This document shows, in pieces, positions 16,765-58,849 of a DNA stretch of 64,000 nucleotides (its first letter is position 1; each line of letters opens with the position of its first letter). Source of the stretch: Christensenella sp. GTDB taxonomy: Bacteria; Bacillota; Clostridia; Christensenellales; UBA3700. A model generated the notes under the pieces. The model saw nothing but the letters and a program-made list of their open reading frames with translations. It had not been told where the DNA came from and searched no databases. The position numbers and the translations under genes were made by a program. Location: contig JALFUR010000004.1 of assembly GCA_022784465.1 (NCBI GenBank), forward strand, positions 203,804 to 267,803, read 5' to 3'.

Positions 16765-16995
16765 GTGAATATCAGTTATTGTGAGCTAAGAGAAAAAGAA
16801 GTAATAAATATCTTTGATGGTAAAAAACTCGGAAGAGTCCTAGATTTGAACTTTGATGACAAAGGACAAATTAGGACTTTTTCTGTTCCTGGAGAAAAGA
16901 GTTTTTTTAAGAATTTTTCTCAAGAACCACAAGTTATTCCTTGGTGTAAAATTATTAAAATTGGAATAGATACTATTTTAGTAGATTTATGTTAA
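16765..16995 (+). CDS. YlmC/YmxH-family PRC-barrel sporulation protein
   Basis: Small PRC-barrel protein (76 residues) of the YlmC/YmxH family, which is linked to sporulation by conservation and position; the biochemical role is unknown. The product reads ISYCELREKEVINIFDGKK and GRVLDLNFD at the N-terminus and ends with a hydrophobic IPWCKIIKIGIDTILVDL strand pair. In clostridia it usually follows sigG, as here. The start is GTG 16765, with no good ribosome site; 18 bases separate it from sigG, so it may be translated by readthrough. Confidence 0.85.
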   Translation: MNISYCELREKEVINIFDGKKLGRVLDLNFDDKGQIRTFSVPGEKSFFKNFSQEPQVIPWCKIIKIGIDTILVDLC

Positions 16996-17234: not shown

Positions 17235-17999
17235 ATGAGAAGTAGTTCAAGACTAATTGGATTAAATGATACAGAATTATCTAATGATGATATTTTTGTA
17301 AGAAAAACGTTAGATAGGGCTAGAGACGATAGTAAAGTTGTTGTCGATGAAACTCATGTTGCAATTTTACTTAAAGAGGGGATTGCTCTTGAAACTCTAA
17401 AGCCTGGCGTTTATCCAATAGTAAATAAAGGAACATTGTTTCAAAGTAGCGAAAAGCTTAGTTCAATAAAAATAGAATTATTTTATATTTCAAAAACTGC
17501 AAAAATCAAAATATTATGGGGAACCCCTGTTTTATTTGACGTTCATGATCCTATCACAGATTCTTCTGCAAAGATGGGTGCTAGTGGCGAAATTGAAATT
17601 CGAGTTAAAAATCCACGTCAGTTTTATCTTGAAGTTGTTGGATCTAGTAAGTCGTTTACTGTAGATGATTTAAAAGATAGGATAAAGGGCAAAATGCTTG
17701 CAATTATTGAACCTACAATTGCTGATTTTATTGAAGAGAACAATATTCCATTAAGTAGAGTTTCTGAAGAAAAATTAGTTTTATCTAAATATGTTGAAAA
17801 GGTGCTTGCAAAAATGCTTTCACGTGAATATGGGTTAAATATTGATTCGTTCATTATAAATAGTACAAATATTCCATCATCAGATATAGATAAATCTTTA
17901 ATTGGTAGAAGTGAACAAAAAACTGTATGTCCTAATTGTGGATTAGTACTTGTAAGTGGCAGTATTTTTTGTAACAATTGCGGAACAAGGGTTAGATAG
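17235..17999 (+). CDS. SPFH/band-7-like protein with C-terminal zinc ribbon
   Basis: First gene of the seven-gene cassette. The 254-residue product has no signal peptide or membrane segment. Residues about 30-225 look like an SPFH (band 7/stomatin) domain of the soluble YdjI type: HVAILLKEGIALETLKPGVYPI, a GEIEIRVKNPRQFYLEVVG strand and a helical stretch ending in YGLNIDSFIIN. The C-terminus is a zinc ribbon with two CxxC pairs (CPNCG and CNNCG). SPFH proteins scaffold membrane microdomains; here the role is probably recruitment of the other cassette proteins to a membrane site, which is inference. AGAGG precedes ATG 17235. Confidence 0.75.
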   Translation: MRSSSRLIGLNDTELSNDDIFVRKTLDRARDDSKVVVDETHVAILLKEGIALETLKPGVYPIVNKGTLFQSSEKLSSIKIELFYISKTAKIKILWGTPVLFDVHDPITDSSAKMGASGEIEIRVKNPRQFYLEVVGSSKSFTVDDLKDRIKGKMLAIIEPTIADFIEENNIPLSRVSEEKLVLSKYVEKVLAKMLSREYGLNIDSFIINSTNIPSSDIDKSLIGRSEQKTVCPNCGLVLVSGSIFCNNCGTRVR

Positions 18000-18007
18000 G
18001 TTGCATT

Positions 18008-18382
18008 ATGGGACTATTAAGTATTTTTAGTAAAACAGGAAGAGATAAGAATATGGTTATAGATATTTCTAGGAGCCATATCTCTAAAGTGCTTGAAGAA
18101 AAAAATAGAATTGAATCTAATGCGGAAAAGATTGAACACTTAATGTTATTAGCAGAAAAATATCCAGATTTTTATGACCAATTGAGTGAGATATTTATTG
18201 ATGTGAAATATTCTAATCCAGTTGTAAATAATGACATAAAAATTCTTGATGAACAAATTGCTTCAAAGCTTGATGATTTAACACTACTTTTATCTAAAAC
18301 AAGAATAAGAAGCGATTTAGCAGTTAATCATTCATTAAGAGATATTAAAGAATTAATACACAAAAGAGAAATGAAAGAATAG
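18008..18382 (+). CDS. Small helical protein with MGLL N-terminus, ESCRT-like operon
   Basis: Function not recognised. The 124-residue product is predicted all-helical by its heptad-like pattern, soluble and highly charged. It begins MGLLSIFSK, an amphipathic start shared in form with the next two genes (MGFLSFLK, MGLFKSKQ) and with eukaryotic ESCRT-III proteins such as CHMP3. It could be a short ESCRT-III-like subunit or an adaptor. It follows the SPFH gene by eight bases and precedes the next gene by eight, so it is part of the operon. Confidence 0.6.
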   Translation: MGLLSIFSKTGRDKNMVIDISRSHISKVLEEKNRIESNAEKIEHLMLLAEKYPDFYDQLSEIFIDVKYSNPVVNNDIKILDEQIASKLDDLTLLLSKTRIRSDLAVNHSLRDIKELIHKREMKE

Positions 18383-18390
18383 GAGGAACC

Positions 18391-19011
18391 ATGGGATTTT
18401 TATCTTTCTTAAAATATAGAAAATTAAAAAGAGAAGATGTTATTGAATCTATTATTAAACTTGAAAAAGAACAAGAGATGATAGAAGATGGCATCGTAGA
18501 AAAAGAAGCAGAAATTAAAGAGCTTTTAGAAAAAGGAAAAAAAGAAAAGTCTCAAGATATTAAGTTGTTGTATGCAAAAAAGATTAATTTCTTAAAAACG
18601 CAGAAAGAGCGTGATGCTAAACGTGGAATGTTTTTGCTATATAACATTGATCAATTAAACAAATTGAAAACTGCAATAGAAGACAAGACTTTCTATGGTG
18701 ATGTAAGCAAGGATAAGATAAATAAATTGTTGCAAGATCCTGCAGGCTTAAGTGCATATTTAAATAAAGCGTTAAAGACTAGAATTAAAACAGAAGAAAA
18801 CCTTACAAATGCAGATGAAACATTTGCTGCTGTTGATATGCAATATGATGAAAATGAAAAGATTTACGGAGCAGGTCAAAATGATGACCAACTTCTTGCT
18901 ATGTTTGAAGAAACAGAAGCTGCTGATTCTGAAGCAGATATTCAAACTATAGACAATGAGGGTGTTGCCGGATTATATAAAACAAAACAAAAAGACATAG
19001 CGGAGGAGTAA
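18391..19011 (+). CDS. Putative ESCRT-III-like coiled-coil protein (first)
   Basis: The 206-residue product begins MGFLSFLKYRKLKRE, continues as a long basic helical hairpin (KEQEMIEDGIVEKEAEIKEL, then KKINFLKTQKERDAKRG) and ends in an acidic tail. Basic N-terminal core helices with an acidic C-terminal region are the overall plan of ESCRT-III (Snf7) proteins, which polymerise on membranes. No clear MIM motif is visible in its tail. GGAGG precedes ATG 18391 and the next gene follows after five bases. The ESCRT-III assignment rests on length, charge layout, N-terminus and neighbours; PspA/Vipp1-like or a plain coiled-coil protein are alternatives. Confidence 0.6.
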   Translation: MGFLSFLKYRKLKREDVIESIIKLEKEQEMIEDGIVEKEAEIKELLEKGKKEKSQDIKLLYAKKINFLKTQKERDAKRGMFLLYNIDQLNKLKTAIEDKTFYGDVSKDKINKLLQDPAGLSAYLNKALKTRIKTEENLTNADETFAAVDMQYDENEKIYGAGQNDDQLLAMFEETEAADSEADIQTIDNEGVAGLYKTKQKDIAEE

Positions 19012-19016
19012 AAGTT

Positions 19017-19607
19017 ATGGGATTATTTAAATCTAAACAAGAAAAAGAAATTGAAAAGAAAATGCTTGTAAAAAAGACAATTAATCAAATGAACAAGCAT
19101 ATTGCAATTCTTGAAGGACAAAAGAAAGTTTATCTTGATGCTGCAAAAAGAGCTAAAAAGCAAGGTCTTAAAGCTCAATATGATTTAGCTATTACAGGAT
19201 TAAAAATGACTCTTGCTCAACAAAAAAGAGCTCAAGAAATGCTATTAAACTTTGAAATTACTTCTCAACTAAAAGATATGACTCAAATGACTCATGATTT
19301 TCTTGGTGGATTATCTATTTTAAGTAAGGAAATGACAAAGTTAACAAATTCAAAGGAATTTGCTAAAGTTCAAGAACAATTTGAAGCTGCTATGGAAGGA
19401 GTACAAACTCAGTCAGAACAAATGGAAGTATATCTTGAAACTTCAGCAACAGAATTTGATGCAAATAAGGGAGACGCAGGTGCTATTTCTGATGACGAAA
19501 TCAATGCTCTTATTGACGAAGAAATTGGACAAGATGAAATTTCTTCAGATTCAATTGATGCGGAATTAGAAAAACTAAAGAAGAAAATGGCACAAAAAGA
19601 AAATTAG
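19017..19607 (+). CDS. Putative ESCRT-III-like protein with MIM1-like tail
   Basis: The 196-residue product reads like a CHMP/Vps2-type ESCRT-III protein. It begins MGLFKSKQEKEIEKK, close to the CHMP3 start. A helical core follows (KKVYLDAAKRAKKQGLKAQY, then KMTLAQQKRAQEMLL), with a middle segment (TQMTHDFLGGLSILSKEMT, FAKVQEQFEAAMEGV) matching the CHMP1 pattern around its fourth helix, an acidic stretch DDEINALIDEEI, and a final helix IDAELEKLKKKM that fits the MIM1 pattern LxxRLxxLK with I and E substitutions. Such tails bind the Vps4 MIT domain; the next gene encodes a MIT-like/AAA protein. It likely polymerises on the inner face of the membrane and is remodelled by that ATPase. Confidence 0.72.
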   Translation: MGLFKSKQEKEIEKKMLVKKTINQMNKHIAILEGQKKVYLDAAKRAKKQGLKAQYDLAITGLKMTLAQQKRAQEMLLNFEITSQLKDMTQMTHDFLGGLSILSKEMTKLTNSKEFAKVQEQFEAAMEGVQTQSEQMEVYLETSATEFDANKGDAGAISDDEINALIDEEIGQDEISSDSIDAELEKLKKKMAQKEN

Positions 19608-19623: not shown

Positions 19624-21087
19624 ATGGCTGAAGATACATCTTTTTTAAGAGATATTTTTAATGTCTACTATGAAAAGGCAAAAGTTGCTCATGCTAATGG
19701 AAATTTAGAATTAGCAAAGCGCAATTATTATTTGGCTGCTGAAACATTATTGAAAATTGCAAAAAATTCAACTCCAGCATTGAAAAAAGCTCAATATGAT
19801 AGAGCTTTGCGTTTGCAAAATATTGCTGAAGATTTAGAAAAACGTCAAATACCAAAATCTTATTCAACAAAACCAGTTTCTTCTTCATCAAATACTTTTA
19901 ATCCAGAATTAAAAGAACAAAACGAAGAAGAAGATAATGGTAAAGAATGGCAATCTGCTGAAATACCTAATTTGAAATTTTCGGATGTTGCAGGTCTTGA
20001 TGATGTAAAAAAGACTATAACAACAAGAGTAATTAATCCATTAAAATATCCAGATAAATATGCAAAATACGGTAAAAAGAGCGGTGGTGGCGTTTTGCTT
20101 TATGGACCTCCAGGAACAGGAAAAACCATGATCGCTAAAGCTATAGCTGGTGAGGTTGGAGCTACATTTTTTGCTGTTAAAGGTTCAGATATCATGTCTA
20201 AATGGGTAGGTGAATCAGAAAAAAATATTAGTTCATTGTTTGAGGCAGCAAGAAAAGAACCAATGGCAATTATATTTATCGACGAGATGGATAGTTTGTT
20301 TGGTGCTAGAGGAAGAGATACTCATAACGATAAAAGAGTTAATGAGTTCTTGCAACAAATCGATGGCTTTGCTTCAAAAGCTGAAAACTTGTTATTGCTT
20401 GGTGCTACAAATAGGCCTTGGGATGTAGACTCTGCTGCAGTAAGATCTGGAAGATTTTCAGAAAAAATCTATGTTACTTTGCCAGATGATAAAGCAAGAG
20501 AATTTTTATTAAGGAAATATTTGGGAAATGCGCCTTTAGATAAAGACATTAATTGGGAAATGCTTGTTAAGTTTACAAAAGGTTATTCTGGTGCAGATAT
20601 TGCTGAAGTATGTGATAAAGCAAAGGAAGAACCACTAAATAAATACATAGAAACTAATCAAGAAGTTCCAGTTTCAATGATTAATGTTTTAGAGGCAATT
20701 AAGAAAGTTAAACCAACTGTTAAAGAAAAAGATATTAAAGTATTTGACGATTATGCAGGTATAACTTCAAATGTAGAAAAAGAGCCAGTTTTAAATGAAA
20801 AAGAAGAAGATGATGTATTTGTTACATTTGCTTCGCGCAATGTTTCAATATTCCCAGGAACTTATCCTGTTTTAAAATTTACTCTTTCAAAAGATTTTGA
20901 AAAAGTTTATATAAATGTAGATGGTTCAAATTACATTTGTAAAAAAGAATTAAATAGTTGGATAAGTGAACCAATTAAAATTGACGAATCTGGAGAATAT
21001 GAAGTTATCATTTCTTCTCAAAACGAAATAGCTAGGGAAAAAATAAAATTTACAAAAGGACTAGAAGAAGACGATTTAGGCCTATAA
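19624..21087 (+). CDS. Vps4-like AAA ATPase with N-terminal MIT-like domain
   Basis: Meiotic-clade-like AAA ATPase. Residues about 5-75 form a MIT-like three-helix bundle (AKVAHANGNLELAKRNYY, then YDRALRLQNIAEDLEK); 75-105 is a polar linker; the AAA domain has Walker A GPPGTGKT (161-168), pore region SKWVGESEK, Walker B IIFIDEMD (216-223), sensor GATNRPWDVD (260-269) and an arginine finger in SGRF (275-278). MIT-linker-AAA is the Vps4 plan; Vps4 disassembles ESCRT-III polymers. Unlike Vps4, an extra beta-rich region of about 110 residues follows (about 375-487). The gene comes 16 bases after the MIM1-bearing ESCRT-III-like gene. FtsH-like origin is unlikely: no membrane segment, no protease motif. 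Confidence 0.8.
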   Translation: MAEDTSFLRDIFNVYYEKAKVAHANGNLELAKRNYYLAAETLLKIAKNSTPALKKAQYDRALRLQNIAEDLEKRQIPKSYSTKPVSSSSNTFNPELKEQNEEEDNGKEWQSAEIPNLKFSDVAGLDDVKKTITTRVINPLKYPDKYAKYGKKSGGGVLLYGPPGTGKTMIAKAIAGEVGATFFAVKGSDIMSKWVGESEKNISSLFEAARKEPMAIIFIDEMDSLFGARGRDTHNDKRVNEFLQQIDGFASKAENLLLLGATNRPWDVDSAAVRSGRFSEKIYVTLPDDKAREFLLRKYLGNAPLDKDINWEMLVKFTKGYSGADIAEVCDKAKEEPLNKYIETNQEVPVSMINVLEAIKKVKPTVKEKDIKVFDDYAGITSNVEKEPVLNEKEEDDVFVTFASRNVSIFPGTYPVLKFTLSKDFEKVYINVDGSNYICKKELNSWISEPIKIDESGEYEVIISSQNEIAREKIKFTKGLEEDDLGL

Positions 21088-21096
21088 AAGGGTTGT

Positions 21097-22539
21097 ATGA
21101 GCGACAAAACTATAGACAAGTTAAAAGCTAATTTTGATGGTATGATTGTAAAGAAATCTTCTTTGCAAAATGTTTTCGCATCTTTGTCTTTGCCAGCTTT
21201 TATTCGAGACTGGTTTTTAAAAAAATATGCAGATAAAGACGGATGCGTTAATGTAAATTTTGTTTTAGAAAAAATAAAAGATGTTATGCCTAGAAAAAAT
21301 GAATGGAATGCAATTTTAGATAAATTGCTTTCTGGAGAAAGAGTAAGGTTTTTAACAAAACTATCTGTCTCAATAGATATAAAGACAAAAAAATACACTT
21401 TTTCTTTGCCAGATTTTGGAATAACAGATAAAGAAACTTACATATCACAATCTGTGTGGGAAAAACACAAAAAAGCATTACTTGTCACAGATGGAGAATT
21501 TTGGGGCATCGTTGATTTAGAATATTTAAATATAGATAATGGCAAGAAAACTGAAGGAAAAATAGCTCTTGTCGACTTTAAAGATTTTAGACCATATAAA
21601 ATTGATTTAGATTTTTATAAAGCTGCAAGAAAAAATTTTGAATTAGATGAGTGGATTGATGTTCTACTTGGTGCTATTGACTATAATGCTAATGGCTTTA
21701 AGAGCGAATTAAATAAGTTAACCATGCTTTCTAGATTGCTTCCTTTTGTTGAAAAAAGATTAAACCTAATTGAACTTGCTCCAAAAGGAACAGGAAAAAG
21801 TTATATTTTCTCTCAAATTTCCAAGAAAGGATGGCTAGTTAGCGGTGGTGTAATGACTAGATCAAAAATGTTTTACGATATGAGCAAAAAACAGGAAGGT
21901 TTAGTAAGTTATTATGACTATGTTGCTTTAGATGAAATTTCTACAATAAAGTTCCCAGATATAAATGAGATGAGAGGAGCTTTAAAAGGTTATTTAGAAA
22001 GTGGTTCATATAATGTTGGAAATAAAGCAGGAATGGGCGATGCTGGCCTTATGATTTTAGGAAATATTCGTTCTGAAAATATGGATGTCAATTTAAATAT
22101 GTTTGAAGAATTACCATCTTTATTTGAAGACACAGCTTTAATAGACAGATTGCATGGTTTTATTAAAGGATGGGATGTTCCTAGAATGAATGAGAATATG
22201 AAAATCAACGATTGGGGATTAAATACAGAATATTTTTCTGAAATAATGCATGCTTTAAGAGAAGATGTAATTCAAAAATCCCTTGTTGATCAATTAGTTG
22301 AAGTTCCACTTGAGGCTGACACAAGAGATACAAATGCTGTAAAGAAAATAGCAACAGCATATATGAAATTATTGTTTCCACATTATTCGACAGTTGATGA
22401 AGTGGATAAAGAATTATTTAAAAAGTATTGTTTAGAGCCTGCTGTTGAAATGAGAAAAATAATAAAAATACAGTTAGGAATAATGGATATAGAATATAAG
22501 AAAAAACCAATGCAAGAATACAAAATAAAAGAAGGATAA
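21097..22539 (+). CDS. BrxL-like AAA+ ATPase lacking a Lon protease domain
   Basis: The 480-residue product resembles the ATPase part of BrxL, the Lon-like protein of BREX phage-defence systems: Walker A LIELAPKGTGKS (228-235 for the loop), then LVSGGVMTRSKMFYDM, GLVSYYDYVALDEIS (Walker B, D279-E280), and a GNIRSENM sensor-like segment. BrxL proteins are usually near 680 residues with a C-terminal Lon-type domain; here the chain ends after the AAA+ region, so it is probably a motor without protease activity. No other BREX gene (pglX, brxC, pglZ) is present. It lies nine bases after the Vps4-like gene and almost touches the TIR gene. Confidence 0.72.
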   Translation: MSDKTIDKLKANFDGMIVKKSSLQNVFASLSLPAFIRDWFLKKYADKDGCVNVNFVLEKIKDVMPRKNEWNAILDKLLSGERVRFLTKLSVSIDIKTKKYTFSLPDFGITDKETYISQSVWEKHKKALLVTDGEFWGIVDLEYLNIDNGKKTEGKIALVDFKDFRPYKIDLDFYKAARKNFELDEWIDVLLGAIDYNANGFKSELNKLTMLSRLLPFVEKRLNLIELAPKGTGKSYIFSQISKKGWLVSGGVMTRSKMFYDMSKKQEGLVSYYDYVALDEISTIKFPDINEMRGALKGYLESGSYNVGNKAGMGDAGLMILGNIRSENMDVNLNMFEELPSLFEDTALIDRLHGFIKGWDVPRMNENMKINDWGLNTEYFSEIMHALREDVIQKSLVDQLVEVPLEADTRDTNAVKKIATAYMKLLFPHYSTVDEVDKELFKKYCLEPAVEMRKIIKIQLGIMDIEYKKKPMQEYKIKEG

Positions 22540-22540
22540 G

Positions 22541-24631
22541 ATGAAATTAGAAGCTTTTCAATGTCCAGTTTGTTTATCGACACATTTTAAGGTAGAAGGA
22601 GACAACTATCAATGTTTGTCATGCGGTAATGTATACACAAAAAGACAAGCAGATAGCCAAATGTTCATTGATCTTAGAATTGCTAATAGTTTTAGACAAT
22701 TTGCAGAGTTTTCAAAAGCTAAATCTATGTATGAGGAGATTATTGCAAAGTATCCTGAGGAAGATTTGTCTTTAGCATATTGGGGCTTATTGCTATGTGA
22801 TCAACAAGTTCTAATTGAAACAGATAATAATGGAGAATTATTCCCATCATTTTATAAAGTAAAAGAACAACCAATAAACACATCTTCAGTTTATAGAATG
22901 TTCTATAACTATGTAACAAAAAATTCAAAAGAAAAATTAAAGATTTATGCAGAAAGATTGAATGTTATTGAAAACGCTAGACAAAAGGCCGTTGTTATTG
23001 AGCAAACAACAAAACCTTATGACGTGTTCTTATGTTTTAAGAAAACTCAATTGCATTCGGATTTTGTTACAAAAGATTTTGATTTAGCTAATGAGATATA
23101 TAACGGAATATCAGATAAATATAAAGTATTTTATTCAGAAAAGTCTTTAAAGGGCATTAGAATAAGAGAATATGAACCAAATATATATTATGGATTACAT
23201 ACGGCAAAGGTAATGATTCTAATTTGTTCTAAAAAAGAATTTTTAGAGTCCCATTGGATGAAAAATGAATGGAAAAGATTTTTAGAAATCAACAAGAATA
23301 ATCCAGCAGGTTCAAGATGTATTATTCCAATTTTTGTAGATAATTTTTCACCAGATGATTTGCCGATGGAATTATCTCATTTGCAAGGTTTAAAATATGG
23401 TATTTCTTTGCTTGGAGATATAGAAAGAGAATTAGATTCAATTATTCATCCTGTAGATAAGGATGCTGAACAACAAAAACAAATTAATTCTAATACTGCA
23501 GCTATTGAAAAAATCACAAAGCTTTTAAAGGAAGGCCAAACAGATAAGCCAGTATTTAACACTAAAATTGATTCTTATTTGAAACTTATAAGAGTTCAAA
23601 TTGAAGATTTAGGGGATTTTGAAGAAGCAGAAGATTTAATAGATAGAGTTCAACATATTGATGCTGAAAATTATATGGCTTGGTATTATAGGTTGCTTGT
23701 TGAATTTAAATCTAGTGATATGAATAATCTTGTTATGCACTCAAATTATAAAGAAAGCGTAAATTATAGATTATTAGTTAAATATGCAAGGGATTCAATA
23801 GCTAAAGATTTTGTTGCTTCAATAGATAAAGCAAGAGAAGATTATTTAGTAAAAACTGCAGAAATTGTTAATAAAAAACTAGAGGAATTAGATAATAATA
23901 AAAGGCCAAATAAGGAAGATATAAATACGATTCGTATGTTTTATGAATCTTTAGATAAAGAAGCAAGAGCTTATGTAAGAAATTTGAAAACAATTGTTAC
24001 AAATGCTTATCAAAAGATTCAAGACAATAAAATAGGAGATTTCAATTCTATATTAACTAAGGTTGAAAAGAAGAACCATCCAAACTATGACGATATCATA
24101 CAAATAAAAGATGAATATAAATCTTTATCAAAAGAAGAAAAGGAAAAAGTTGGCAATTACAAACAAGTAATTGTTGAGGCATCAAATAAGATGAAACAAA
24201 ACAAAGTTCAAATTGTTCAACAAGCCTTAGATGATTTAGATCAAGCGGTTTTACCTCAAAGAGAGGAAATTATTAAAGTTGAGAAAAAATATAAAGCTTT
24301 AGAGGATGAATACAAACAATATGTTCGCAACTTTAATGAAATAATGGCTAGAGCTTATGATAAAAAATATAAAAATGATGCAAAAGTATTAAACGAATAT
24401 TTAACTAAGCTTCCTTCAGAAAAGGTTGCAAGTAGAGAACTATATATAAAATTTGAAAATAGATATAGAGCTCTGCCAAGAAAATATAGAGAGCTTGTAA
24501 CAAATATTGAGTATCTAGATAATTATTATGACAAATTAATTCAACAAGAGAAAAAAGTTGAAGTAAAACAAAATGATAAACAAGATAATTCTCAACCTAA
24601 AAAGAAAAATTGGTTTTGGAATAAAGGATAA
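22541..24631 (+). CDS. Zinc-ribbon/TIR-domain protein with four helical repeats
   Basis: The 696-residue product starts with a zinc ribbon (C8xxC11 and C25xxC28), followed by a TPR-like helical stretch (about 40-95). Residues about 159-275 form a TIR domain: PYDVFLCFKKTQ, DLANEIYNGISDKYKVFYSE, then SKKEFLESHWMKNEW, where E243 is the candidate catalytic glutamate of NAD-cleaving TIRs. The C-terminal half has four related 55-60-residue helical repeats (pattern Y..L..E.K..V.N) and ends in a basic tail. TIR proteins act as NADases or signal producers in bacterial immunity. As the last cassette gene it may be the effector. ATG 22541 directly follows the BrxL-like stop. Confidence 0.78.
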   Translation: MKLEAFQCPVCLSTHFKVEGDNYQCLSCGNVYTKRQADSQMFIDLRIANSFRQFAEFSKAKSMYEEIIAKYPEEDLSLAYWGLLLCDQQVLIETDNNGELFPSFYKVKEQPINTSSVYRMFYNYVTKNSKEKLKIYAERLNVIENARQKAVVIEQTTKPYDVFLCFKKTQLHSDFVTKDFDLANEIYNGISDKYKVFYSEKSLKGIRIREYEPNIYYGLHTAKVMILICSKKEFLESHWMKNEWKRFLEINKNNPAGSRCIIPIFVDNFSPDDLPMELSHLQGLKYGISLLGDIERELDSIIHPVDKDAEQQKQINSNTAAIEKITKLLKEGQTDKPVFNTKIDSYLKLIRVQIEDLGDFEEAEDLIDRVQHIDAENYMAWYYRLLVEFKSSDMNNLVMHSNYKESVNYRLLVKYARDSIAKDFVASIDKAREDYLVKTAEIVNKKLEELDNNKRPNKEDINTIRMFYESLDKEARAYVRNLKTIVTNAYQKIQDNKIGDFNSILTKVEKKNHPNYDDIIQIKDEYKSLSKEEKEKVGNYKQVIVEASNKMKQNKVQIVQQALDDLDQAVLPQREEIIKVEKKYKALEDEYKQYVRNFNEIMARAYDKKYKNDAKVLNEYLTKLPSEKVASRELYIKFENRYRALPRKYRELVTNIEYLDNYYDKLIQQEKKVEVKQNDKQDNSQPKKKNWFWNKG

Positions 24632-24636
24632 ATATT

Positions 24637-25095
24637 ATGAAATGTGTTTTTTGTGGATGTTTAGATAGTAAAGTTATTGATAGCCGTTTAAATGAAGATG
24701 GAACTTCAATTAGACGTAGAAGAGAATGCAATCAATGTGGAAGACGTTTTACAACATATGAAACTATGGAAATTGCTCCTGTTATGGTTGTTAAGAAAAA
24801 TGGAGCAAGACAAGAGTTTTCTCGTAATAAATTGAAAATGGGAATATTAAGTGCATGTGCAAAACGTCCTGTTCCAATGGAAAAAATTGATGCTTTAGTT
24901 GATGAAATCGAAAAGAAAATAGCTAATTCTTTAGAGCAAGAAGTTACTTCTTCTCAAATTGGAGAATATGTTATGGAAGGCTTAAAGAAATTGGACGATG
25001 TAGCATATATCAGATTTGCTGCAGTATATAGAGAATTTAAAGATATAAACAGCTGGTTAAATGAAATTAAAGATTTGGTAAAAGAAAAGAAATGA
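24637..25095 (+). CDS. nrdR: Transcriptional repressor NrdR
   Basis: NrdR senses ATP/dATP and represses ribonucleotide reductase genes. The 152-residue product has the zinc ribbon (C3, C6, C31, C34, including CVFCG and RRRECNQCGRRF) followed by an ATP-cone (PVMVVKKNGARQEFSRNKL). Length and domains are exactly those of the family. It starts six bases after the TIR gene, so the cassette seems to have been placed between ylmC and nrdR, with nrdR now possibly read from the cassette promoter. Confidence 0.97.
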   Translation: MKCVFCGCLDSKVIDSRLNEDGTSIRRRRECNQCGRRFTTYETMEIAPVMVVKKNGARQEFSRNKLKMGILSACAKRPVPMEKIDALVDEIEKKIANSLEQEVTSSQIGEYVMEGLKKLDDVAYIRFAAVYREFKDINSWLNEIKDLVKEKK

Positions 25096-41634: not shown

Positions 41635-42066
41635 ATGAGACATTTGAGTATAGATTTAGGAGAAGTTAGAATCGGATTAGCAATGAGTGATTCTATGGGA
41701 ATAATTGCTAATGGACTTGAAACATACCAAAGAAAATATATCTATAAAGATATTGAATATATTGCAAAATTGGCTATGGACAACCTTGTTAAATGCGTAG
41801 TTATTGGTCTACCAATAAATATGAATGGAACAAGAGGAGAACGTGTTGAAAAATCAGAACAATTTGCTTCTATGCTTAATGATAAATTCAAGGAATTGAA
41901 TTATGAATGTAAAATTGATTTTCAAGACGAAAGATTGACAACAGTTTCTTCTGAAAGAGTTTTAATTGAGGCTGGAGTAAGAAGGGAAAATAGAAAAAAA
42001 GTTATAGATAAAATGGCTGCTACAATTATTCTTCAAACATATTTAGATTGCCATGTAGGTAGATAA
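41635..42066 (+). CDS. ruvX: Putative pre-16S rRNA nuclease / Holliday-junction resolvase-like YqgF
   Basis: RNase H-fold nuclease of the YqgF/RuvX family, implicated in 16S rRNA 5' maturation. The 143-residue product has SIDLGEVRIGLAMSD, GLPINMNGTRGER and DERLTTV, which supply the acidic active-site residues, and a C-terminal aspartate in KVIDKMAA. Length and motifs are typical. It abuts the ABC permease gene and overlaps the next gene by TAATG. Confidence 0.93.
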   Translation: MRHLSIDLGEVRIGLAMSDSMGIIANGLETYQRKYIYKDIEYIAKLAMDNLVKCVVIGLPINMNGTRGERVEKSEQFASMLNDKFKELNYECKIDFQDERLTTVSSERVLIEAGVRRENRKKVIDKMAATIILQTYLDCHVGR

Positions 42067-44447
42067 TGACAAAAAAATATAATGGTTATTTCTTATGTAT
42101 TTTATTAATGCTTCTAATAAGCATAGCTTGTTTGCTTGTTGTTTTTAATGGACAAGTTGAAGCTGAAGGCGAAATACAATACAATTTAACCTTATTTTAT
42201 AGTGAAGAAGATGTAGGAACATCGTACTTGTTTGCTGAGGGAACACAAATATCGCTTCCAAATGATTTATCTGATTATGATGAAAATTATAAATATACTT
42301 TTTATGGTTATGATTCAGAAACAAAAACAAAAGGAGAAATACTTTCATCGCTAACTATAACAATGAATGATAATATTTCATTGTTTGTAGAAAAAGTTAA
42401 AAAACTTAATTATATTATATATAATTATACGTTAGATGGAGTCAAAGATAATGATTTTAATTCTTATTCTTGTTATGGTCAATATTCTATTGAACAAAAG
42501 GATAATTATAAGATTAGATACTATAATAGTGAAACAAAAGAAATTGGCGATGAAATAGCGTATGATACTATATTCTATGAAGACAAAACTTTTGTTCAGA
42601 TCCCAGCTTTTAATGTAATTGCTTACGATTATAACGATGAGAAAATATCTACAACTTATATCGATTGGCATGAGGAGTATATTTTCCCAGCAAAGAGTAG
42701 TATAGAAGGTGAAAAATCTTTAGGCTGGTCATATAATAAGGATTCAAATAGATTAATTAATTCAATTGTTAAAGATTCTTTTGACGATATATCAATATAC
42801 GAATATGTAGAAAAAACTTTTGAATTTGATATTCAAGTTAATGAAACTGTTTATGCAGATAAAGATACACTTCAATCACAATTGATAGATTTACCTACAA
42901 CTTATTATGAGTTATGCAATTTTTTATTGTCGTTGCAAAATAGTAACTGCTCATATACTTTGTTTGTATTAAAAGATGGAGAAAATATTGTATTTAATGG
43001 CTATGATTCTAATTATAGAATTGATGAAACAAAAGGCTCTCCAATTCAATTAACTTTAGATGAGGTGTATGAAACCTATACAATAACATACAATCTTAAC
43101 GGAGGTTCATTTACTCAAGAACAAAACGTGTTATATGAGTATAATTACGCCTCTGGATTTGCACTTAGAAGCCCATCTAGATTAGGTTATACATTTATAA
43201 ATTGGACTATTACTGGCACGGATACTCCAATAGATTTAATTTTTGATAGAGAAGGAGATCTTGAAATTGATGCTAATTGGGAAGCTAATAAATATACAAT
43301 TAGTTTTGTTATTGATCCATCATTAGGCGTTTATGAAGATTATGAAGCAACTTATAATGAGAGATTAATTGGTATAAATGATGATAGATTGCCAACAAAA
43401 TATGGTTATTCATTTATAGGCTGGTCCTATGTTGAAAATGAAAGAAGCGGCATCGTGGATTCTAACACTATATATCAATTTGCACGTAATATTTCTTTAT
43501 ATCCAGTTTTTGAAAATTTAAAATTTAATATATCATTTGATTCAGGATTTGAAGAATGTAAAGTTGATCCTATTGAAGTTGAATATGATAAACCAATAAA
43601 TATTTCAGATTTAACTTATAAAGGATATACATTTAAAGGATGGATATATGAAGATAGAATCTTTAAGAATGAGGATATATACACTTATATAAATAACATC
43701 ACATTAACTGCAGTATGGAAAGCAAATAAATATAATATTAATTTATATGTAGCTGAAGATAAAGAGCCTCAAATAATTGAGGTTACATATGATTCTTCAG
43801 TAAATTTAATATCATCTTACGTATTAGAAAACACAAAGAACTTAATTGGCTTTTATTTAGACGAAATACAAAAAGACAATCTAATTGCTGAGCGAGATGG
43901 AATTATTGAAAAATGGACGTTAGATAAAGATGTAAACATATATGTTTATTGTTTAGACAAAGAAGATTATATTAGTAATGCGCAAATAAGTATATCTAAT
44001 CTTCCTGATGATTACACATTGCTTTTAGATAATAAAGCTATTGAAAGTGACACAAAAATAGACGAAATAGGCGTTCACACAATTATTGTAAAGCAAAACA
44101 ATAATTCTGTTTATGTTTATAACATAACTATAAAAGAAGATTATACTATTGATACTTCAATTGTTTATGATGCTCCACCTGTTATAAACAAAATTAATGC
44201 TACAGTTTTATTAGATGGAAAAGAAATTGAGTTTAAAGATGGCAAATATAGATTAGACAAAAATGGCACTCATACAATAACTGTTCTTGGAGCAGGAGAT
44301 TATAAGCAAGAATATACGTATACCTATGAAAATAAAAATATTTTTTATTCTTGGTTTTTCCTTGGAATAGGAATTTTAGTTATGGTAATTACGATAGTAT
44401 TTGCAGCAATAGGAAGGAGGCATATGATTCAAGATGACACTGATTGA
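42066..44447 (+). CDS. InlB-repeat surface protein with C-terminal membrane anchor
   Basis: The 793-residue chain has an N-terminal signal peptide (about 8-30), a long exterior part with at least three Listeria-Bacteroides InlB-type beta repeats (pattern YNLNGGSF...GYTFINWT...I.ANWEANKYTI, about 340-590), and one C-terminal membrane segment (about 762-784) ending in a short charged tail. It is a type I membrane protein, probably binding something outside the cell. As the first gene of the vWA/PP2C/kinase run, overlapping ruvX by TAATG and the next gene by 14 bases, it is a candidate sensor or receptor for that system. Confidence 0.75.
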   Translation: MTKKYNGYFLCILLMLLISIACLLVVFNGQVEAEGEIQYNLTLFYSEEDVGTSYLFAEGTQISLPNDLSDYDENYKYTFYGYDSETKTKGEILSSLTITMNDNISLFVEKVKKLNYIIYNYTLDGVKDNDFNSYSCYGQYSIEQKDNYKIRYYNSETKEIGDEIAYDTIFYEDKTFVQIPAFNVIAYDYNDEKISTTYIDWHEEYIFPAKSSIEGEKSLGWSYNKDSNRLINSIVKDSFDDISIYEYVEKTFEFDIQVNETVYADKDTLQSQLIDLPTTYYELCNFLLSLQNSNCSYTLFVLKDGENIVFNGYDSNYRIDETKGSPIQLTLDEVYETYTITYNLNGGSFTQEQNVLYEYNYASGFALRSPSRLGYTFINWTITGTDTPIDLIFDREGDLEIDANWEANKYTISFVIDPSLGVYEDYEATYNERLIGINDDRLPTKYGYSFIGWSYVENERSGIVDSNTIYQFARNISLYPVFENLKFNISFDSGFEECKVDPIEVEYDKPINISDLTYKGYTFKGWIYEDRIFKNEDIYTYINNITLTAVWKANKYNINLYVAEDKEPQIIEVTYDSSVNLISSYVLENTKNLIGFYLDEIQKDNLIAERDGIIEKWTLDKDVNIYVYCLDKEDYISNAQISISNLPDDYTLLLDNKAIESDTKIDEIGVHTIIVKQNNNSVYVYNITIKEDYTIDTSIVYDAPPVINKINATVLLDGKEIEFKDGKYRLDKNGTHTITVLGAGDYKQEYTYTYENKNIFYSWFFLGIGILVMVITIVFAAIGRRHMIQDDTD

Positions 44448-46208: not shown

Positions 46209-46832
46209 ATGAAGGCGAAACTATTAATATCATTTGTCATAGATAATTCAGCTGCAGTTCAAGGAGAAAAATTTGAAAAAATTAAAGCTGCTTTAATGAA
46301 TTATGAAAAGGCAATGAAAGAATCTGATGTTGATAATATTGAGATTGAAATTGTTACTTTTAACGATTTTGATCCTATTGTTATTAATAAGTTTGGAGAT
46401 ATGAATATTGATTATGACAATCTAAATGTATTTAGAATGCCATTTTTAGGAAAAGCAATAGATTTAGCGCTTCAAGATTTATTGAATCGAGTTGAGTTTT
46501 ATAATACTTTGGAAGTTCCTTTATATAAGCCTTGGCTATTTGTACTTACCGATGCATACAGTTTTGATGATTTAGAGGAAATTGCAAAGAAAATTAAGCA
46601 AAATGTCGCTGAAAACAAGCTTCTTTACATGCCTTTTATGTTATCAAAAAAGAAAATACCAACAAACATTGAACCATTATTGTCTACTAAAAAATTTATG
46701 AGAATTAAAGAGAATACATATGATTTATTCTTTAATTGGTTCTTTAATATGACAACAAAAAGAGCAAATACAGAACTTGGCGAATCAGTTAAATTTGATC
46801 GCTCAGGTTTTGAAGGATGGGCTGTAATATGA
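46209..46832 (+). CDS. vWA-domain protein with degenerate MIDAS
   Basis: A 207-residue vWA-like protein related in form to TerY. The first strand ends in VIDNSAAV, so the MIDAS motif DxSxS has lost its second serine (A16); the later FVLTDAYS keeps an aspartate. Metal binding may therefore be weak or absent. The order vWA-PP2C-kinase-vWA follows. Start ATG 46209 lies three bases after the preceding stop; a GTG at 46203 is also in frame. Confidence 0.7.
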   Translation: MKAKLLISFVIDNSAAVQGEKFEKIKAALMNYEKAMKESDVDNIEIEIVTFNDFDPIVINKFGDMNIDYDNLNVFRMPFLGKAIDLALQDLLNRVEFYNTLEVPLYKPWLFVLTDAYSFDDLEEIAKKIKQNVAENKLLYMPFMLSKKKIPTNIEPLLSTKKFMRIKENTYDLFFNWFFNMTTKRANTELGESVKFDRSGFEGWAVI

Positions 46833-47794
46833 TATTTACTAAATGGAGACATTCACAATCAGTTAGAATTGGCTTGGATCATATTGATAGCAATATGCCA
46901 TGCCAAGATAATGCTTATTATTTATGTAAAAATGGTGTCCATGTATTAGCTTTAAGTGATGGTGCTGGCTCAAAAAAATTCTCTCAAATTGGTTCAGATA
47001 CAGTAACAAAAGCTATTTGCTCATATTTAATTTCAGAATTTGATGCTTTATCTATGATTTCTGAAGTATACGGAAAGAGTGAAGAAGAAATCGAAGATTC
47101 AAGAAAAATTGTAAAAAACTCAATATTTAATCATTTGAAAAAAGAATTATTAGATAAAGTATCAGGAGAGGTCACCTTTGATGATTTAGCTTGCACGCTA
47201 TTATTTGTTGCTATAAAAGAAGGTAGATATATAATGGGGCATATTGGAGATGGTGTAATTGCTGGATTGTTTAATTCTGGAAAGAGCGAAACACTTAAGG
47301 TTTTATCTCATCCAGAAAATGGTGAGCAAATAAATATAACATTCTTTTTAACTGACCCAGATGCAATTGATCATTTAAGAATTACAACAGGGAATTTTAA
47401 TCATTTAACAGGAATCTTGCTGATGTCTGATGGTCCTGAAGAAGTACTTTATAATTCTATTAATGGATTGCACCTTAATTGTCTAAAATTATTCGATAAT
47501 TTCAATAGTTATTCATGTTCAAAATACGACATAATTTTAGAAAAGTTTTTATCTACTCAAGTAGCTAAATATAGCTATGATGATTTAAGTTTAAACTTGT
47601 TATATTTAAGTTCAATAGATGGATCTAATGCATCAAAAGAATTGTTAGAAGATTTCTTTATAGATATAACAAATAAAAACCAAATAATACAAAGAAGCAG
47701 CTATGGAGTGTTTTTAGATAATGCTCATAAGTATAAACAAAGAGACAACTTGTCATACATTTTGGAAGGGACGAGATTAAATGGCAAAGATTAA
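46829..47794 (+). CDS. PP2C-like protein phosphatase
   Basis: Metal-dependent serine/threonine phosphatase of the PP2C type (321 residues from ATG 46829; ATG 46817 is an alternative). Motifs: SNMPCQDNAYY, ALSDGAGS (metal-binding aspartate), DDLACTLLFV, GHIGDGVI, LMSDGPEE and YDDLSLNLLYL, all in the family order. Soluble. It should oppose the kinase encoded next, with which it overlaps by 14 bases. This phosphatase-kinase-vWA grouping is the TerY-P triad arrangement. Confidence 0.88.
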   Translation: MIFTKWRHSQSVRIGLDHIDSNMPCQDNAYYLCKNGVHVLALSDGAGSKKFSQIGSDTVTKAICSYLISEFDALSMISEVYGKSEEEIEDSRKIVKNSIFNHLKKELLDKVSGEVTFDDLACTLLFVAIKEGRYIMGHIGDGVIAGLFNSGKSETLKVLSHPENGEQINITFFLTDPDAIDHLRITTGNFNHLTGILLMSDGPEEVLYNSINGLHLNCLKLFDNFNSYSCSKYDIILEKFLSTQVAKYSYDDLSLNLLYLSSIDGSNASKELLEDFFIDITNKNQIIQRSSYGVFLDNAHKYKQRDNLSYILEGTRLNGKD

Positions 47795-49112
47795 TAGATT
47801 GTACTATATTGAAGAAAGTGTATTTAGTACTGAAAAGTTATATAGCTTTTTGGAGGTTTTGCTTAGCGATTCAAATGTTGAAGCTTATTTTGCCGTATCT
47901 TCGTCTATACAAGATGAAATAAAGAGATATTTCTCAATGGGTTTAAATGAAGATGCATATAATATTCAAACATACCTATTCTTTTTCGCTAATAAAAAGA
48001 GACTTGAATATATTGATACAAATGGATATTTAGATATGGATGATTTTTTGAAAAAGACATCCAAGTACAATGAAACCTTTGTTTTGACGCAGCAAGAGAA
48101 GATTTATGACGCATTTAAGGGACTTAAATCAAAGAAGCAAGACTTGAAGATATATTGCTTAAAACACCAAAATATAGTAGAATGGAAGGAGACAGAAAAG
48201 CAAGTATATAGCGCTTATTATTTGGCAAAAGACATATACATTAATAGTATAGATATTGACAAAATAGACGTTGTATATTCTCAAAAATATGGATTTTTAA
48301 AACTGGATAAAGAATCAGGAATATCTGGTGGAGAGGGCATTTGTTATAAAACTTACAACAACTTTTTTGTTAAGTTATATAACAAAAATCATTTAAATTA
48401 TATTAATTTAAAAAAGCTTCAAAAAATGCTTACGATGGATATTACTAATGAGTTTATTTTGTGGCCACTAGATATTGTATATTACAACAATAATTTTGTT
48501 GGATATGTAATGAAAGAACTTAAAGATTGTCAAAACATTGATGATATGCGTGATTTAGGTTTTAGAGTTGGTGATATGGTTCCTATGGATAGATATAAAA
48601 TTTGTTTAAATTTTTTAAAGCAAGTTGATTATCTTCATAGAAAGAATATTTTAGTAGGAGACATGAAACCAGATAACATCTTAGTGAGAGAACCTAACGA
48701 TTTATTCATTATAGATGCTGCTAGTTTCCAAATTGAAGATTATTGTTGTCCTGTATGTCATCCTGCATACACAGAATTGACTTATACAGGTGATGATTTA
48801 AGGAAAAAACTTAGAACAATTGAAAACGAGTATTTTCCAGTCAATAGAATACTATTTGAAATGATGATGTTAAAAAGTCCATTTTATAATAGAGAAAATA
48901 TTGAAGTTAACGAAGAAGGTAATAGAAAATTCGAGTATCCTATGAAAAAGAGTCAAGTAGTAGGAACGCCTGGTCAACATATTAAGTTATGGTTTGCAAT
49001 GACTCAAAAAATGAGAGAGTATTTTTATCAATATTTTGTTCTTGGTAAAATTACTGATATATCCGAATGGATTAGAGAATTAGAATTGTTTATAAAACAA
49101 AAGGAGGGGTAG
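47781..49112 (+). CDS. PIN-like domain fused to a serine/threonine kinase-like domain
   Basis: The C-terminal two thirds (about 175-440) is a protein-kinase fold: glycine loop SGGEG (182-186), lysine K198 in FFVKLYN, catalytic GDMKPDN (D294) and the metal-binding aspartate D312 in IIDAASF in place of DFG. A substrate-side segment contains CCPVCHPAYT. The first about 150 residues look like a PIN-type fold: an acidic YYIEES start, AVSSSIQDEIKRYF, DMDDFL and a TFVLTQQEKIYDAF strand-helix; this part of the call is tentative. It overlaps the phosphatase gene. As the triad kinase it probably phosphorylates partners encoded nearby. Confidence 0.75.
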   Translation: MAKINRLYYIEESVFSTEKLYSFLEVLLSDSNVEAYFAVSSSIQDEIKRYFSMGLNEDAYNIQTYLFFFANKKRLEYIDTNGYLDMDDFLKKTSKYNETFVLTQQEKIYDAFKGLKSKKQDLKIYCLKHQNIVEWKETEKQVYSAYYLAKDIYINSIDIDKIDVVYSQKYGFLKLDKESGISGGEGICYKTYNNFFVKLYNKNHLNYINLKKLQKMLTMDITNEFILWPLDIVYYNNNFVGYVMKELKDCQNIDDMRDLGFRVGDMVPMDRYKICLNFLKQVDYLHRKNILVGDMKPDNILVREPNDLFIIDAASFQIEDYCCPVCHPAYTELTYTGDDLRKKLRTIENEYFPVNRILFEMMMLKSPFYNRENIEVNEEGNRKFEYPMKKSQVVGTPGQHIKLWFAMTQKMREYFYQYFVLGKITDISEWIRELELFIKQKEG

Positions 49113-57238: not shown

Positions 57239-58849
57239 ATGAACAAAAAATATAGTATATTTCTAATATTTGTTTTATTTACTATATTAATAGTGTTATT
57301 TTGTTCATGCTCAGACAAAGAATCAAATGCTGAAGGTATAGTTGAAATCTCTGTTAAATTCTATATAGGAGATGAACTATACCAAGAAAGTACTTATAAA
57401 ACAGGAGATTTAATTTATGCTCCTGATATTAAAGAATATAATGGTTATACTATTAGCTATTGGGCTATAGGAAACGGATGGGTTTTCATGCCATATACTG
57501 CTGGCACAGAAGACATTGTATTTAAAGCAGTAACTTATAAAGAAGTTCCTATCACTTATTATTCAGATTCTGAGGTATTTTATTCGGGAGTTAGTTTGCC
57601 TGGAGAAAAAATTTATGCTCCATTTGAAGTTCCTGTAAAAGAAGGATATACTTTCCAATATTGGACAATCAATAATGAGAAAGCATCATTTCCATATAAA
57701 ATTTCAGATACAGATAAATCATATGTGTTTAATGCATATTTTATAAAAAATGTTGATGTTAAATTTTATGTTGATGATTATTTATATGAAACAAAGAATA
57801 TCCCATATGCGTCTACTGTATCTTCGCCAAGTGCGCCAACAAAAGAAAAATATAATTTTATTTGCTGGAAAGATGAAGAAGGTAATATTTTAGATAATTC
57901 TAAACAAATTACATCAAGTGAATCGTATTATGCAGTTTTTGAACAAGTAATGTACGAAGTAAATTATTACATAGAAGGAACATTATATCAAAAACTTATT
58001 GTTGAAAGTTATGCTCCTAATATATATTATCCAAATGCTGAATATTTTTACGGCTGGTATAAGGACTCATCATTTAAAACGAAATTTGATTTTTCTACTA
58101 AAATAACATCAAATATTAATTTGTATGGTAAAACAGTAAGTGATAATTTCCAAGTTTTATATAATCAATTTGGATCATCTAGTTATATATCTATTTCAGA
58201 TGAAAAAATAGCTGATTTTGATAATAATTATAGTTTTGATAATTATAAAAATATTATGACTCTTGCATTAAATAAATATGATAAATCTGCGATTGTTTCA
58301 TATAAATTCCAAAGAGCAAATAAAAAATATATAATTATTTCTTATGATGTAATAAATGGTTTAATTAAAGCGACATATGGTTCTACAATCGATGAAGGGG
58401 CATATTCTTATGTTGAACTATCAGTATCACAATATAAATATGCAGATTTGAATTTTTCTTCATATTCAGTAATTAATTATAACGAAGGATCTTTTGTTAC
58501 TGATTTAACTGGCTTATCATTGCAAATTGCAGAAATTGCATATAATGAAATTCATGGAAAATATAAAGAGTACATTGCTGGATTTGATAATACTATAACA
58601 TACGATGAAATCCCATCATTCACTCCATCTTGTACAATAAATAACGAAAATGGTGTTATTAGTATTAGTTCAAATGTTAATGCTTTTTCTGTTAAAATAT
58701 CAGCTAATAATAATGTTGTTGCTTATTCAACAAATGTTAAAGAAGTTAAATATAATTCTAAAGCGGATACAACATATGATGTAGTAGTAAAATTTGTTTA
58801 TACAGTTAATTCTAAACAATATATGTGTATTCTTTCTAAAACAATATAA
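57239..58849 (+). CDS. InlB-repeat lipoprotein
   Basis: The 536-residue chain has a signal peptide with a cysteine-rich lipobox (LFCSC, lipidated residue about 22-24), then at least three beta repeats of the InlB/Listeria-Bacteroides type (about 35-290; pattern G.TI..W..., YAPFEVPVKEGYTFQYWT) and a C-terminal region of unclear fold. It is anchored outside the membrane, function unknown. It lies between pyrH and frr, which are normally adjacent, with AAAGAGG before ATG. Base and codon use look like those of its neighbours. Confidence 0.75.
   Translation: MNKKYSIFLIFVLFTILIVLFCSCSDKESNAEGIVEISVKFYIGDELYQESTYKTGDLIYAPDIKEYNGYTISYWAIGNGWVFMPYTAGTEDIVFKAVTYKEVPITYYSDSEVFYSGVSLPGEKIYAPFEVPVKEGYTFQYWTINNEKASFPYKISDTDKSYVFNAYFIKNVDVKFYVDDYLYETKNIPYASTVSSPSAPTKEKYNFICWKDEEGNILDNSKQITSSESYYAVFEQVMYEVNYYIEGTLYQKLIVESYAPNIYYPNAEYFYGWYKDSSFKTKFDFSTKITSNINLYGKTVSDNFQVLYNQFGSSSYISISDEKIADFDNNYSFDNYKNIMTLALNKYDKSAIVSYKFQRANKKYIIISYDVINGLIKATYGSTIDEGAYSYVELSVSQYKYADLNFSSYSVINYNEGSFVTDLTGLSLQIAEIAYNEIHGKYKEYIAGFDNTITYDEIPSFTPSCTINNENGVISISSNVNAFSVKISANNNVVAYSTNVKEVKYNSKADTTYDVVVKFVYTVNSKQYMCILSKTI

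What the first reader, a model, noticed from the sequence alone, without database searches (positions are those of the whole stretch)
19017..19607. CHMP-like protein from N-terminal anchor to MIM1-like tail
The chain begins MGLFKSKQEK (CHMP3 begins MGLFGKTQEK), has the basic core helices, a segment resembling CHMP1 (FAKVQEQFEAAMEGV, then a SAT element and DDEINALIDEEI) and ends in IDAELEKLKKKM, which fits the Vps4-binding MIM1 pattern. Agreement of five elements in the right order is more than coiled-coil similarity would give.
Basis: partly seen in the sequence, partly recalled or inferred. Interest (0 to 1): 0.85.

Follow-up and report, generated by a model that had tools for sequence, protein, structure and literature searches.

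The report
Bacterial ESCRT-III and Vps4 gene cluster
A gut-type Clostridia bacterium carries a mobile seven-gene cluster that encodes what looks like the membrane-cutting ESCRT-III/Vps4 machine, known until now as a paired system only from archaea and eukaryotes, linked to proteins typical of bacterial immunity.

Summary
The ORF at 19017-19607 (196 aa) is real. It belongs to a family found in 23 fetched Clostridia loci, nearly always next to the same partners. The single window protein scores nothing in Pfam, but a close relative (46% identical) passes Pfam's Snf7/ESCRT-III cut-off, and Snf7 is the family matched most often across members. The layout is that of ESCRT-III: basic long hairpin, acidic C-terminal half, fourth and fifth helices, short terminal helix. 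The only match in 72,556 plasmids is a Thermococcus gene inside an archaeal ESCRT locus. The next gene encodes an AAA ATPase with a predicted MIT domain (closest solved fold: Sulfolobus Vps4 MIT) and a Vps4_C domain. The operon is SPFH, two small helical proteins, ESCRT-III, Vps4, BrxL, TIR protein, inserted between ylmC and nrdR; kin have the empty site. [quoted passage not shown] The strict MIM1 pattern is not met and the 'SAT element' is not conserved. Membrane activity and an immune role are inferred, not shown.

The parts
16765..16995 (+). ylmC/ymxH-like core gene (left edge of the insertion; not part of the system)
   Evidence: ORF; the same small gene lies directly between sigG and nrdR in kin without the cluster
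17235..17999 (+). SPFH/Band-7 protein with C-terminal zinc ribbon: probable membrane platform
   Evidence: Pfam Band_7_1 E 1.7e-17 plus zinc ribbons; a relative in 18 of 23 loci
18008..18382 (+). g2, 124-aa helical protein, no known family; some relatives have an N-terminal hydrophobic segment
   Evidence: no Pfam match; relatives in 15 of 23 loci at the same place
18391..19011 (+). g3, 206-aa helical protein, possible second subunit; weakly similar to small helical proteins beside archaeal and Chloroflexota Vps4
   Evidence: no Pfam match; profile similarity to Thermococcus/Chlorohelix neighbours
19017..19607 (+). ESCRT-III (CHMP/Snf7-like) protein, the finding
   Evidence: family member above the Snf7 cut-off; helix layout; archaeal ESCRT-locus relative; charge pattern
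19555..19604 (+). C-terminal MIM1-like amphipathic helix (I-D-x-E-L-x-x-L core)
   Evidence: conserved terminal helix in the alignment; strict MIM1 0 of 22, relaxed 13 of 22; predicted helix 177-195
19624..21087 (+). Vps4-like ATPase: MIT + AAA + AAA_lid_3 + Vps4_C + C-terminal beta-like domain
   Evidence: AAA 1.1e-41, Vps4_C 23.9 bits (cut-off 21.3); CdvC model aligned over residues 8-377; Walker A/B, pore loop SKWVGESEK
19624..19878 (+). MIT domain (residues 1-85)
   Evidence: pLDDT 87 three-helix bundle; top Foldseek and VIA match 2w2u, archaeal Vps4 MIT, Z 13.3, rmsd 1.6 over 74 of 75
20761..21084 (+). C-terminal extension of Vps4 found only where BrxL is present
   Evidence: 6 of 6 BrxL loci carry it, none of the complete Vps4 proteins in BrxL-less loci
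21097..22539 (+). BrxL (Lon-like AAA), orphan: no PglZ in the genome
   Evidence: Pfam BrxL_ATPase 5.8e-115, TIGR02688 445 bits over cut-off; PADLOC BrxL 4.4e-201; PglZ absent
22541..24631 (+). zinc ribbon + TPR + TIR protein: probable sensor/effector
   Evidence: TIR_2 36.1 bits (cut-off 28), TPR_6; variable relatives in most loci
24637..25095 (+). nrdR (right edge of the insertion; core gene)
   Evidence: TIGR00244 1.7e-57; next to ylmC/sigG in kin without the cluster

Best explanation
The locus encodes a bacterial ESCRT-III/Vps4 machine. The CHMP-like protein binds the inner face of the membrane through its basic helical hairpin and assembles into filaments, probably at sites marked by the SPFH protein and with g2/g3 as co-subunits. 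Its acidic C-terminal half ends in a short helix that is captured by the MIT domain of the neighbouring Vps4-like ATPase, which threads and removes subunits and so drives remodelling. The BrxL and TIR proteins are exchangeable partners that tie membrane events to a response, most likely defence against phage or envelope damage. Shown by computation: family relationship, helix layout, MIT and Vps4_C domains, conserved operon, mobile insertion. Inferred: filament formation, membrane binding, tail-MIT contact, and above all the biological role (about 0.45 for defence).
For: Snf7 is the family matched by most members (8 of 22), one above the curated cut-off. Helices 7-49, 52-109, 113-149, 159-174, 177-195. 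Basic core (pI about 9.9) and acidic tail (pI about 4.2) in all 22 members. The only plasmid hit is an archaeal gene next to a PP2C, a Vps4-like ATPase (Vps4_C 35.8 bits) and a Ser/Thr kinase, a set-up described for the 'Main' archaeal ESCRT clade (PMC10936438). MIT domain. Vps4 gene in 22 of 23 loci with the ESCRT-III gene, in the same order. SPFH with zinc ribbon also occurs in the archaeal Meth_adaptin ESCRT loci. Empty site in same-family genomes, patchy spread (14 of 151 genomes of the order). TIR, TIR-LRR and BrxL partners.
Against: The window protein alone matches no Pfam family. The AlphaFold model has only moderate confidence (pLDDT 69) and its PDB matches have E above 0.1, mixed with BAR domains and ferritins. 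No member has the strict MIM1 pattern. The tree of AAA domains did not place the ATPase with archaeal Vps4 rather than Cdc48, and the PDB sequence search puts p97/Cdc48 first. Pfam's MIT model itself was not reached. The widened N-terminal profile matches designed TPR proteins better than MIT domains by sequence.
Confidence: 0.77

Rival explanations
1. The small protein is a coiled-coil adaptor for a generic AAA+ unfoldase (IetA/Cdc48-like). The system remodels BrxL or TIR protein complexes and never touches or bends membranes.
For: PADLOC IetA models match the AAA domain (5.5e-41); the AAA tree does not single out Vps4; long-helix fold matches are unspecific; the N-terminal profile also resembles TPR repeats.
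Against: IetA models cover only the AAA part; MIT fold with archaeal Vps4 as best match; Vps4_C above cut-off; Snf7 above cut-off for a family member; archaeal ESCRT-locus relative; SPFH membrane partner.
Confidence: 0.12
2. It is a divergent PspA/Vipp1-type membrane stress protein that has joined an AAA ATPase, rather than an ESCRT-III of the archaeal/eukaryotic branch.
For: PspA and Snf7 are homologous, PspA is common in bacteria and is sometimes linked to Band-7 proteins and AAA ATPases (PMC11237479). A Vipp1 structure is among the Foldseek matches (7o3w).
Against: No PspA family match in the window protein, among the listed matches of its 22 relatives or in the whole genome, whereas Snf7 is matched; MIT partner; terminal helix after an acidic linker; archaeal ESCRT-locus relative.
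Confidence: 0.07
3. The cluster works in cell division or sporulation, as its place beside ftsA-ftsZ-spoIIGA-sigE-sigG might suggest, comparable to the archaeal Cdv system.
For: Position 3 kb downstream of ftsZ in the window, and directly after an ftsZ gene in the closest relative L004.
Against: Same-family genomes have the site without the cluster. In other genomes of the order it lies among unrelated genes. Absent from most relatives, while ftsZ is kept in the kin examined.
Confidence: 0.04

Closest known systems
Archaeal ESCRT systems (Vps4/CdvC + ESCRT-III/CdvB; 'Main' and 'Meth_adaptin' clades of Makarova et al. 2024, PMC10936438)
   Same: ESCRT-III gene beside a MIT-AAA-Vps4_C ATPase; small helical neighbours; SPFH with zinc ribbon in Meth_adaptin loci; sequence relative in a Thermococcus ESCRT locus.
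   Different: Bacterial host; no adaptin-like, winged-helix, kinase or phosphatase gene recognised inside the operon; instead BrxL and zinc-ribbon/TPR/TIR proteins. [quoted passage not shown]
Bacterial PspA/Vipp1 (phage shock protein) systems
   Same: Same superfamily; SPFH/Band-7 partners; bacteria.
   Different: No PF04012 match; MIT-bearing Vps4-type ATPase and a terminal interaction helix.
Bacterial Vps4-like transfers and Snf7-AAA associations (Ravi et al. 2024, PMC11237479)
   Same: Vps4-like ATPase in bacteria.
   Different: In the reported transfers snf7 is replaced by a TPR-6TM gene; the reported bacterial Snf7 homologues carry a transmembrane segment and lie in ABC-transporter operons. 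No SPFH-ESCRT-III-MIT/Vps4-BrxL-TIR operon was found in the passages read.
BREX (BrxL)
   Same: BrxL protein above the NCBIfam cut-off.
   Different: No PglZ in the genome; BrxL sits at the end of the ESCRT-like operon and is present in only some loci.
IetAS and other AAA-based defence systems
   Same: AAA domain similarity; patchy insertion.
   Different: No IetS-type partner recognised; MIT and Vps4_C domains present.

Membership tests
ESCRT-III / Snf7 (PF03357) | Sequence profile match at the curated score | tested here: met
   Met by relative L036 (34.0 against 27.3 bits), nearly by L037 (26.9); the window protein itself scores nothing. Membership is by transitivity inside the family (46% identity).
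ESCRT-III / Snf7 (PF03357) | Long alpha1-alpha2 hairpin, then alpha3-alpha5 and a terminal helix | tested here: met
   Predicted helices 7-49, 52-109, 113-149, 159-174, 177-195, moderate confidence.
ESCRT-III / Snf7 (PF03357) | Significant structural match to solved ESCRT-III | tested here: inconclusive
   CdvB ranks first and CHMP2A has probability 0.98, but all E-values are above 0.1 and BAR domains score alike.
ESCRT-III / Snf7 (PF03357) | Basic core and acidic C-terminal region | tested here: met
   pI 9.6-10.2 and 4.1-4.6 in all 22 members.
ESCRT-III / Snf7 (PF03357) | MIM motif in the tail | tested here: inconclusive
   Strict MIM1 0 of 22; relaxed spacing 13 of 22, not the window protein; a terminal I-D/E-x-x-L helix is conserved. 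Archaeal CdvB proteins use another MIM type, which was not tested.
ESCRT-III / Snf7 (PF03357) | Polymerises on and remodels membranes | not testable with these tools
   needs purified protein
Vps4 / CdvC | N-terminal MIT domain | tested here: met
   Predicted fold, best match archaeal Vps4 MIT 2w2u, Z 13.3, rmsd 1.6 over 74 residues, yeast and human Vps4 MITs also near the top. The Pfam MIT model was not reached.
Vps4 / CdvC | AAA domain with active motifs and Vps4_C | tested here: met
   Vps4_C 23.9 against 21.3 bits; Walker A 161, Walker B 216, pore loop 192.
Vps4 / CdvC | ESCRT-III gene in the neighbourhood (criterion of PMC10936438) | tested here: met
   22 of 23 loci; criterion read.
Vps4 / CdvC | AAA domain groups with Vps4 in a tree | tested here: inconclusive
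   Long branches, few archaeal comparators.
PspA / Vipp1 (PF04012) | PspA_IM30 profile match | tested here: not met
   Not among the matches of the window protein nor anywhere in the genome; the control search finds it in 9 of 14 known genomes.
BREX | PglZ with BrxL | tested here: not met
   PglZ absent from the genome.

The most novel reading that the evidence does not exclude
A bacterial immune or membrane-damage system whose core is an ESCRT-III/Vps4 membrane-remodelling machine with exchangeable sensor and effector modules (TIR, TIR-LRR, BrxL), probably acquired from or shared with archaea.
Probability: 0.42. Interest if true: 0.94.

Novelty: new variant of a known kind. Interest (0 to 1): 0.84.

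Why it matters
[quoted passage not shown] A compact bacterial system with a MIT-bearing ATPase next to an ESCRT-III protein would extend the paired system to a third domain. It would give a small set of proteins for reconstitution and make it testable whether ESCRT-type membrane remodelling serves bacterial immunity. The exact match between presence of BrxL and an extra C-terminal domain on the ATPase gives a concrete clue to how the ATPase is wired to its partner.

Tried and rejected
Pfam, PADLOC and NCBIfam with the single protein gave only weak chance matches (GlxA, PtuB, CdvC). Pfam Snf7 over 291 genomes of the class found nothing: the model is too insensitive, and even its Sulfolobus control stays below cut-off. 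The family profile over 398 genomes of the phylum gave only the own genome plus one weak hit, which is a chemotaxis-receptor coiled coil, so the family looks confined to this order within Bacillota. No relatives in phages or viral contigs. VIA-align on the ESCRT-III model does not separate ESCRT-III from BAR domains. The AAA tree was uninformative. g3 against the ESCRT-III profile: low probability, so g3 is not claimed as ESCRT-III. An attempt to search archaeal genomes with the Thermococcus locus as centre was not possible. Literature searches for a bacterial ESCRT-III + Vps4 + BrxL/TIR system found none in the held library; subscription papers and preprints were not covered.

Full report
Observation. 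The ORF at 19017-19607 is exactly as described. The window comes from a 1.59 Mb Clostridia genome; the closest relatives are MAGs named Christensenella/Christensenellaceae/Clostridia. Upstream lie ftsA, ftsZ, spoIIGA, sigE, sigG and a small ylmC-like gene; downstream lies nrdR (gene names other than nrdR are from sequence likeness and my own knowledge).

The cluster. Seven tightly packed genes (gaps 1-16 bases) lie between ylmC and nrdR: SPFH with zinc ribbon; g2; g3; the ESCRT-III-like protein; a Vps4-like ATPase; BrxL; a zinc-ribbon/TPR/TIR protein. In same-family genomes sigG (with the ylmC-like gene where read) is followed closely by nrdR with no cluster, so the cluster is an insertion. 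The ESCRT-III-like gene was found in 14 of 151 genomes of the order, two of these weakly, and in none of the eight same-family genomes sampled. Nine further loci came from the genome collection.

Conserved neighbourhood. Of 23 loci with the ESCRT-III gene, 22 have the ATPase, 18 the SPFH gene, 15 g2, 14 g3 and 5 BrxL; 16 have a stretch matched by the iterated profile of the TIR protein, which drifts to zinc ribbons and short repeats and so overcounts. Several loci are cut by contig ends, so these are lower bounds. The order is SPFH > g2 > g3 > ESCRT-III > Vps4 > variable partner. The one locus without the ATPase (L040) is in a genome with a second, complete copy (L033). Two genomes carry several ESCRT-III-like paralogues in one locus (L039, L041).

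Is it ESCRT-III? The single protein has no Pfam match. Of 22 family members 8 match Snf7, more than any other family, and L036 passes the curated cut-off with 34.0 bits. With a widened profile that includes the archaeal relative, the best of 177,635 PDB sequences is CHMP2A, colinear over the core, E = 0.033. AlphaFold with the family alignment gives helices 7-49, 52-109, 113-149, 159-174 and 177-195, the ESCRT-III order, at pLDDT 69. Foldseek ranks archaeal CdvB first and gives CHMP2A a probability of 0.98, but no E-value is significant and other long-helix proteins score alike, so the fold search counts as inconclusive. The basic core and acidic C-terminal half are kept in all members.

Independent support. 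Among 72,556 plasmid records the only tblastn match (E = 5e-4) is a hypothetical gene of a Thermococcus peptonophilus plasmid. It lies beside a PP2C phosphatase, a Vps4-like ATPase with Vps4_C at 35.8 bits and a Ser/Thr kinase, as described for the 'Main' archaeal ESCRT clade (PMC10936438). This gene scores 60.8 bits against the bacterial family profile; 2000 shuffles of it in blocks of seven residues reach at most 16.0. A Chloroflexota plasmid (Candidatus Chlorohelix) has a related ATPase with a MIT-like N-terminus, two small helical proteins and a kinase, so such systems may occur in more than one bacterial phylum.

Is the partner Vps4? The ATPase has AAA, lid and Vps4_C domains above their cut-offs, and the archaeal CdvC model aligns over residues 8-377, though far below that model's own cut-off. 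Residues 1-85 are predicted with pLDDT 87 as a three-helix bundle. The best structural match by both methods is the MIT domain of the Sulfolobus Vps4 (2w2u; Z 13.3, rmsd 1.6 over 74 of 75 residues), with other archaeal, yeast and human MIT domains close behind. Sequence evidence alone is weaker: MIT chains appear among the PDB matches at E from 0.007 upward, and TPR proteins outrank them with a broader profile. The AAA domain is about as close to Cdc48 as to Vps4 and a tree did not resolve this. By the published criterion (MIT domain or ESCRT genes nearby) it counts as Vps4 on both grounds. In three loci (L010, L033, L035) the ATPase is a two-AAA protein.

The tail. A short terminal helix with the core I-[DE]-x-x-[LIM]-x-x-hydrophobic is conserved after a variable acidic linker. 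It has the spacing of MIM1 but not its arginine. I therefore call it MIM1-like and treat binding to the MIT domain as an inference.

Partners. The TIR protein belongs to a variable set: TIR with TPR, TIR with BspA-type leucine-rich repeats, and zinc-ribbon proteins without TIR. All six ATPases in BrxL loci, and none of the complete ones in BrxL-less loci, carry an extra C-terminal beta-like domain with a conserved acidic end (G-[LIF]-x-E-[DN]-[DY]...); the beta-like reading is by eye. The loci are related, so this is suggestive rather than a clean statistical test; it points to a physical link between the ATPase and BrxL. The genome has no PglZ and no PspA.

Mechanism. Most likely the ESCRT-III protein assembles at the membrane with SPFH, is remodelled by the MIT-bearing ATPase, and the TIR/BrxL proteins turn the membrane event into a response. 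TIR and BrxL partners, exchangeable modules and mobile insertion speak for defence; direct evidence is lacking.

Novelty. [quoted passage not shown] Another 2024 paper reports bacterial Vps4 transfers in which snf7 is replaced, and a few bacterial Snf7-AAA operons of another type (PMC11237479). The operon described here was not found in the held literature. I file it as a new variant of a known kind.

Noticed in passing
window 46817-49112: A PP2C-like phosphatase gene followed by a protein-kinase-like gene (overlapping ends), read by eye from the translations. A kinase/phosphatase pair also accompanies archaeal 'Main' ESCRT loci, but this one is 22 kb away.
   Followed up: no
window 42066-44447 and 57239-58849: Two large predicted surface or secreted proteins with repeats that look like the Listeria-Bacteroides type (by eye).
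   Followed up: no
L047 (Thermococcus peptonophilus plasmid NZ_CP014751.1): An ESCRT locus on an archaeal plasmid: ESCRT-III-like protein, PP2C, Vps4, Ser/Thr kinase, two small helical proteins; annotated only as hypothetical/ATP-binding. Shows that such loci can be plasmid-borne.
   Followed up: partly
L050 (Candidatus Chlorohelix allophototropha plasmid NZ_CP128401.1): A Chloroflexota plasmid with a MIT-like AAA ATPase, two small helical proteins and a Ser/Thr kinase: a second bacterial phylum with an ESCRT-like locus.
   Followed up: partly
L039 11509-13419: An ESCRT-III-like domain fused to a C-terminal part that resembles an FtsK/SpoIIIE-type ATPase (by eye), with two more paralogues in the same locus.
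   Followed up: no
L010, L033, L035: In these loci the Vps4-like protein has two AAA domains behind the MIT-like region, similar to the two-AAA partner reported for some bacterial PspA systems.
   Followed up: partly
L041: A locus with three ESCRT-III-like paralogues, two AAA proteins and a SNF2-type helicase.
   Followed up: no
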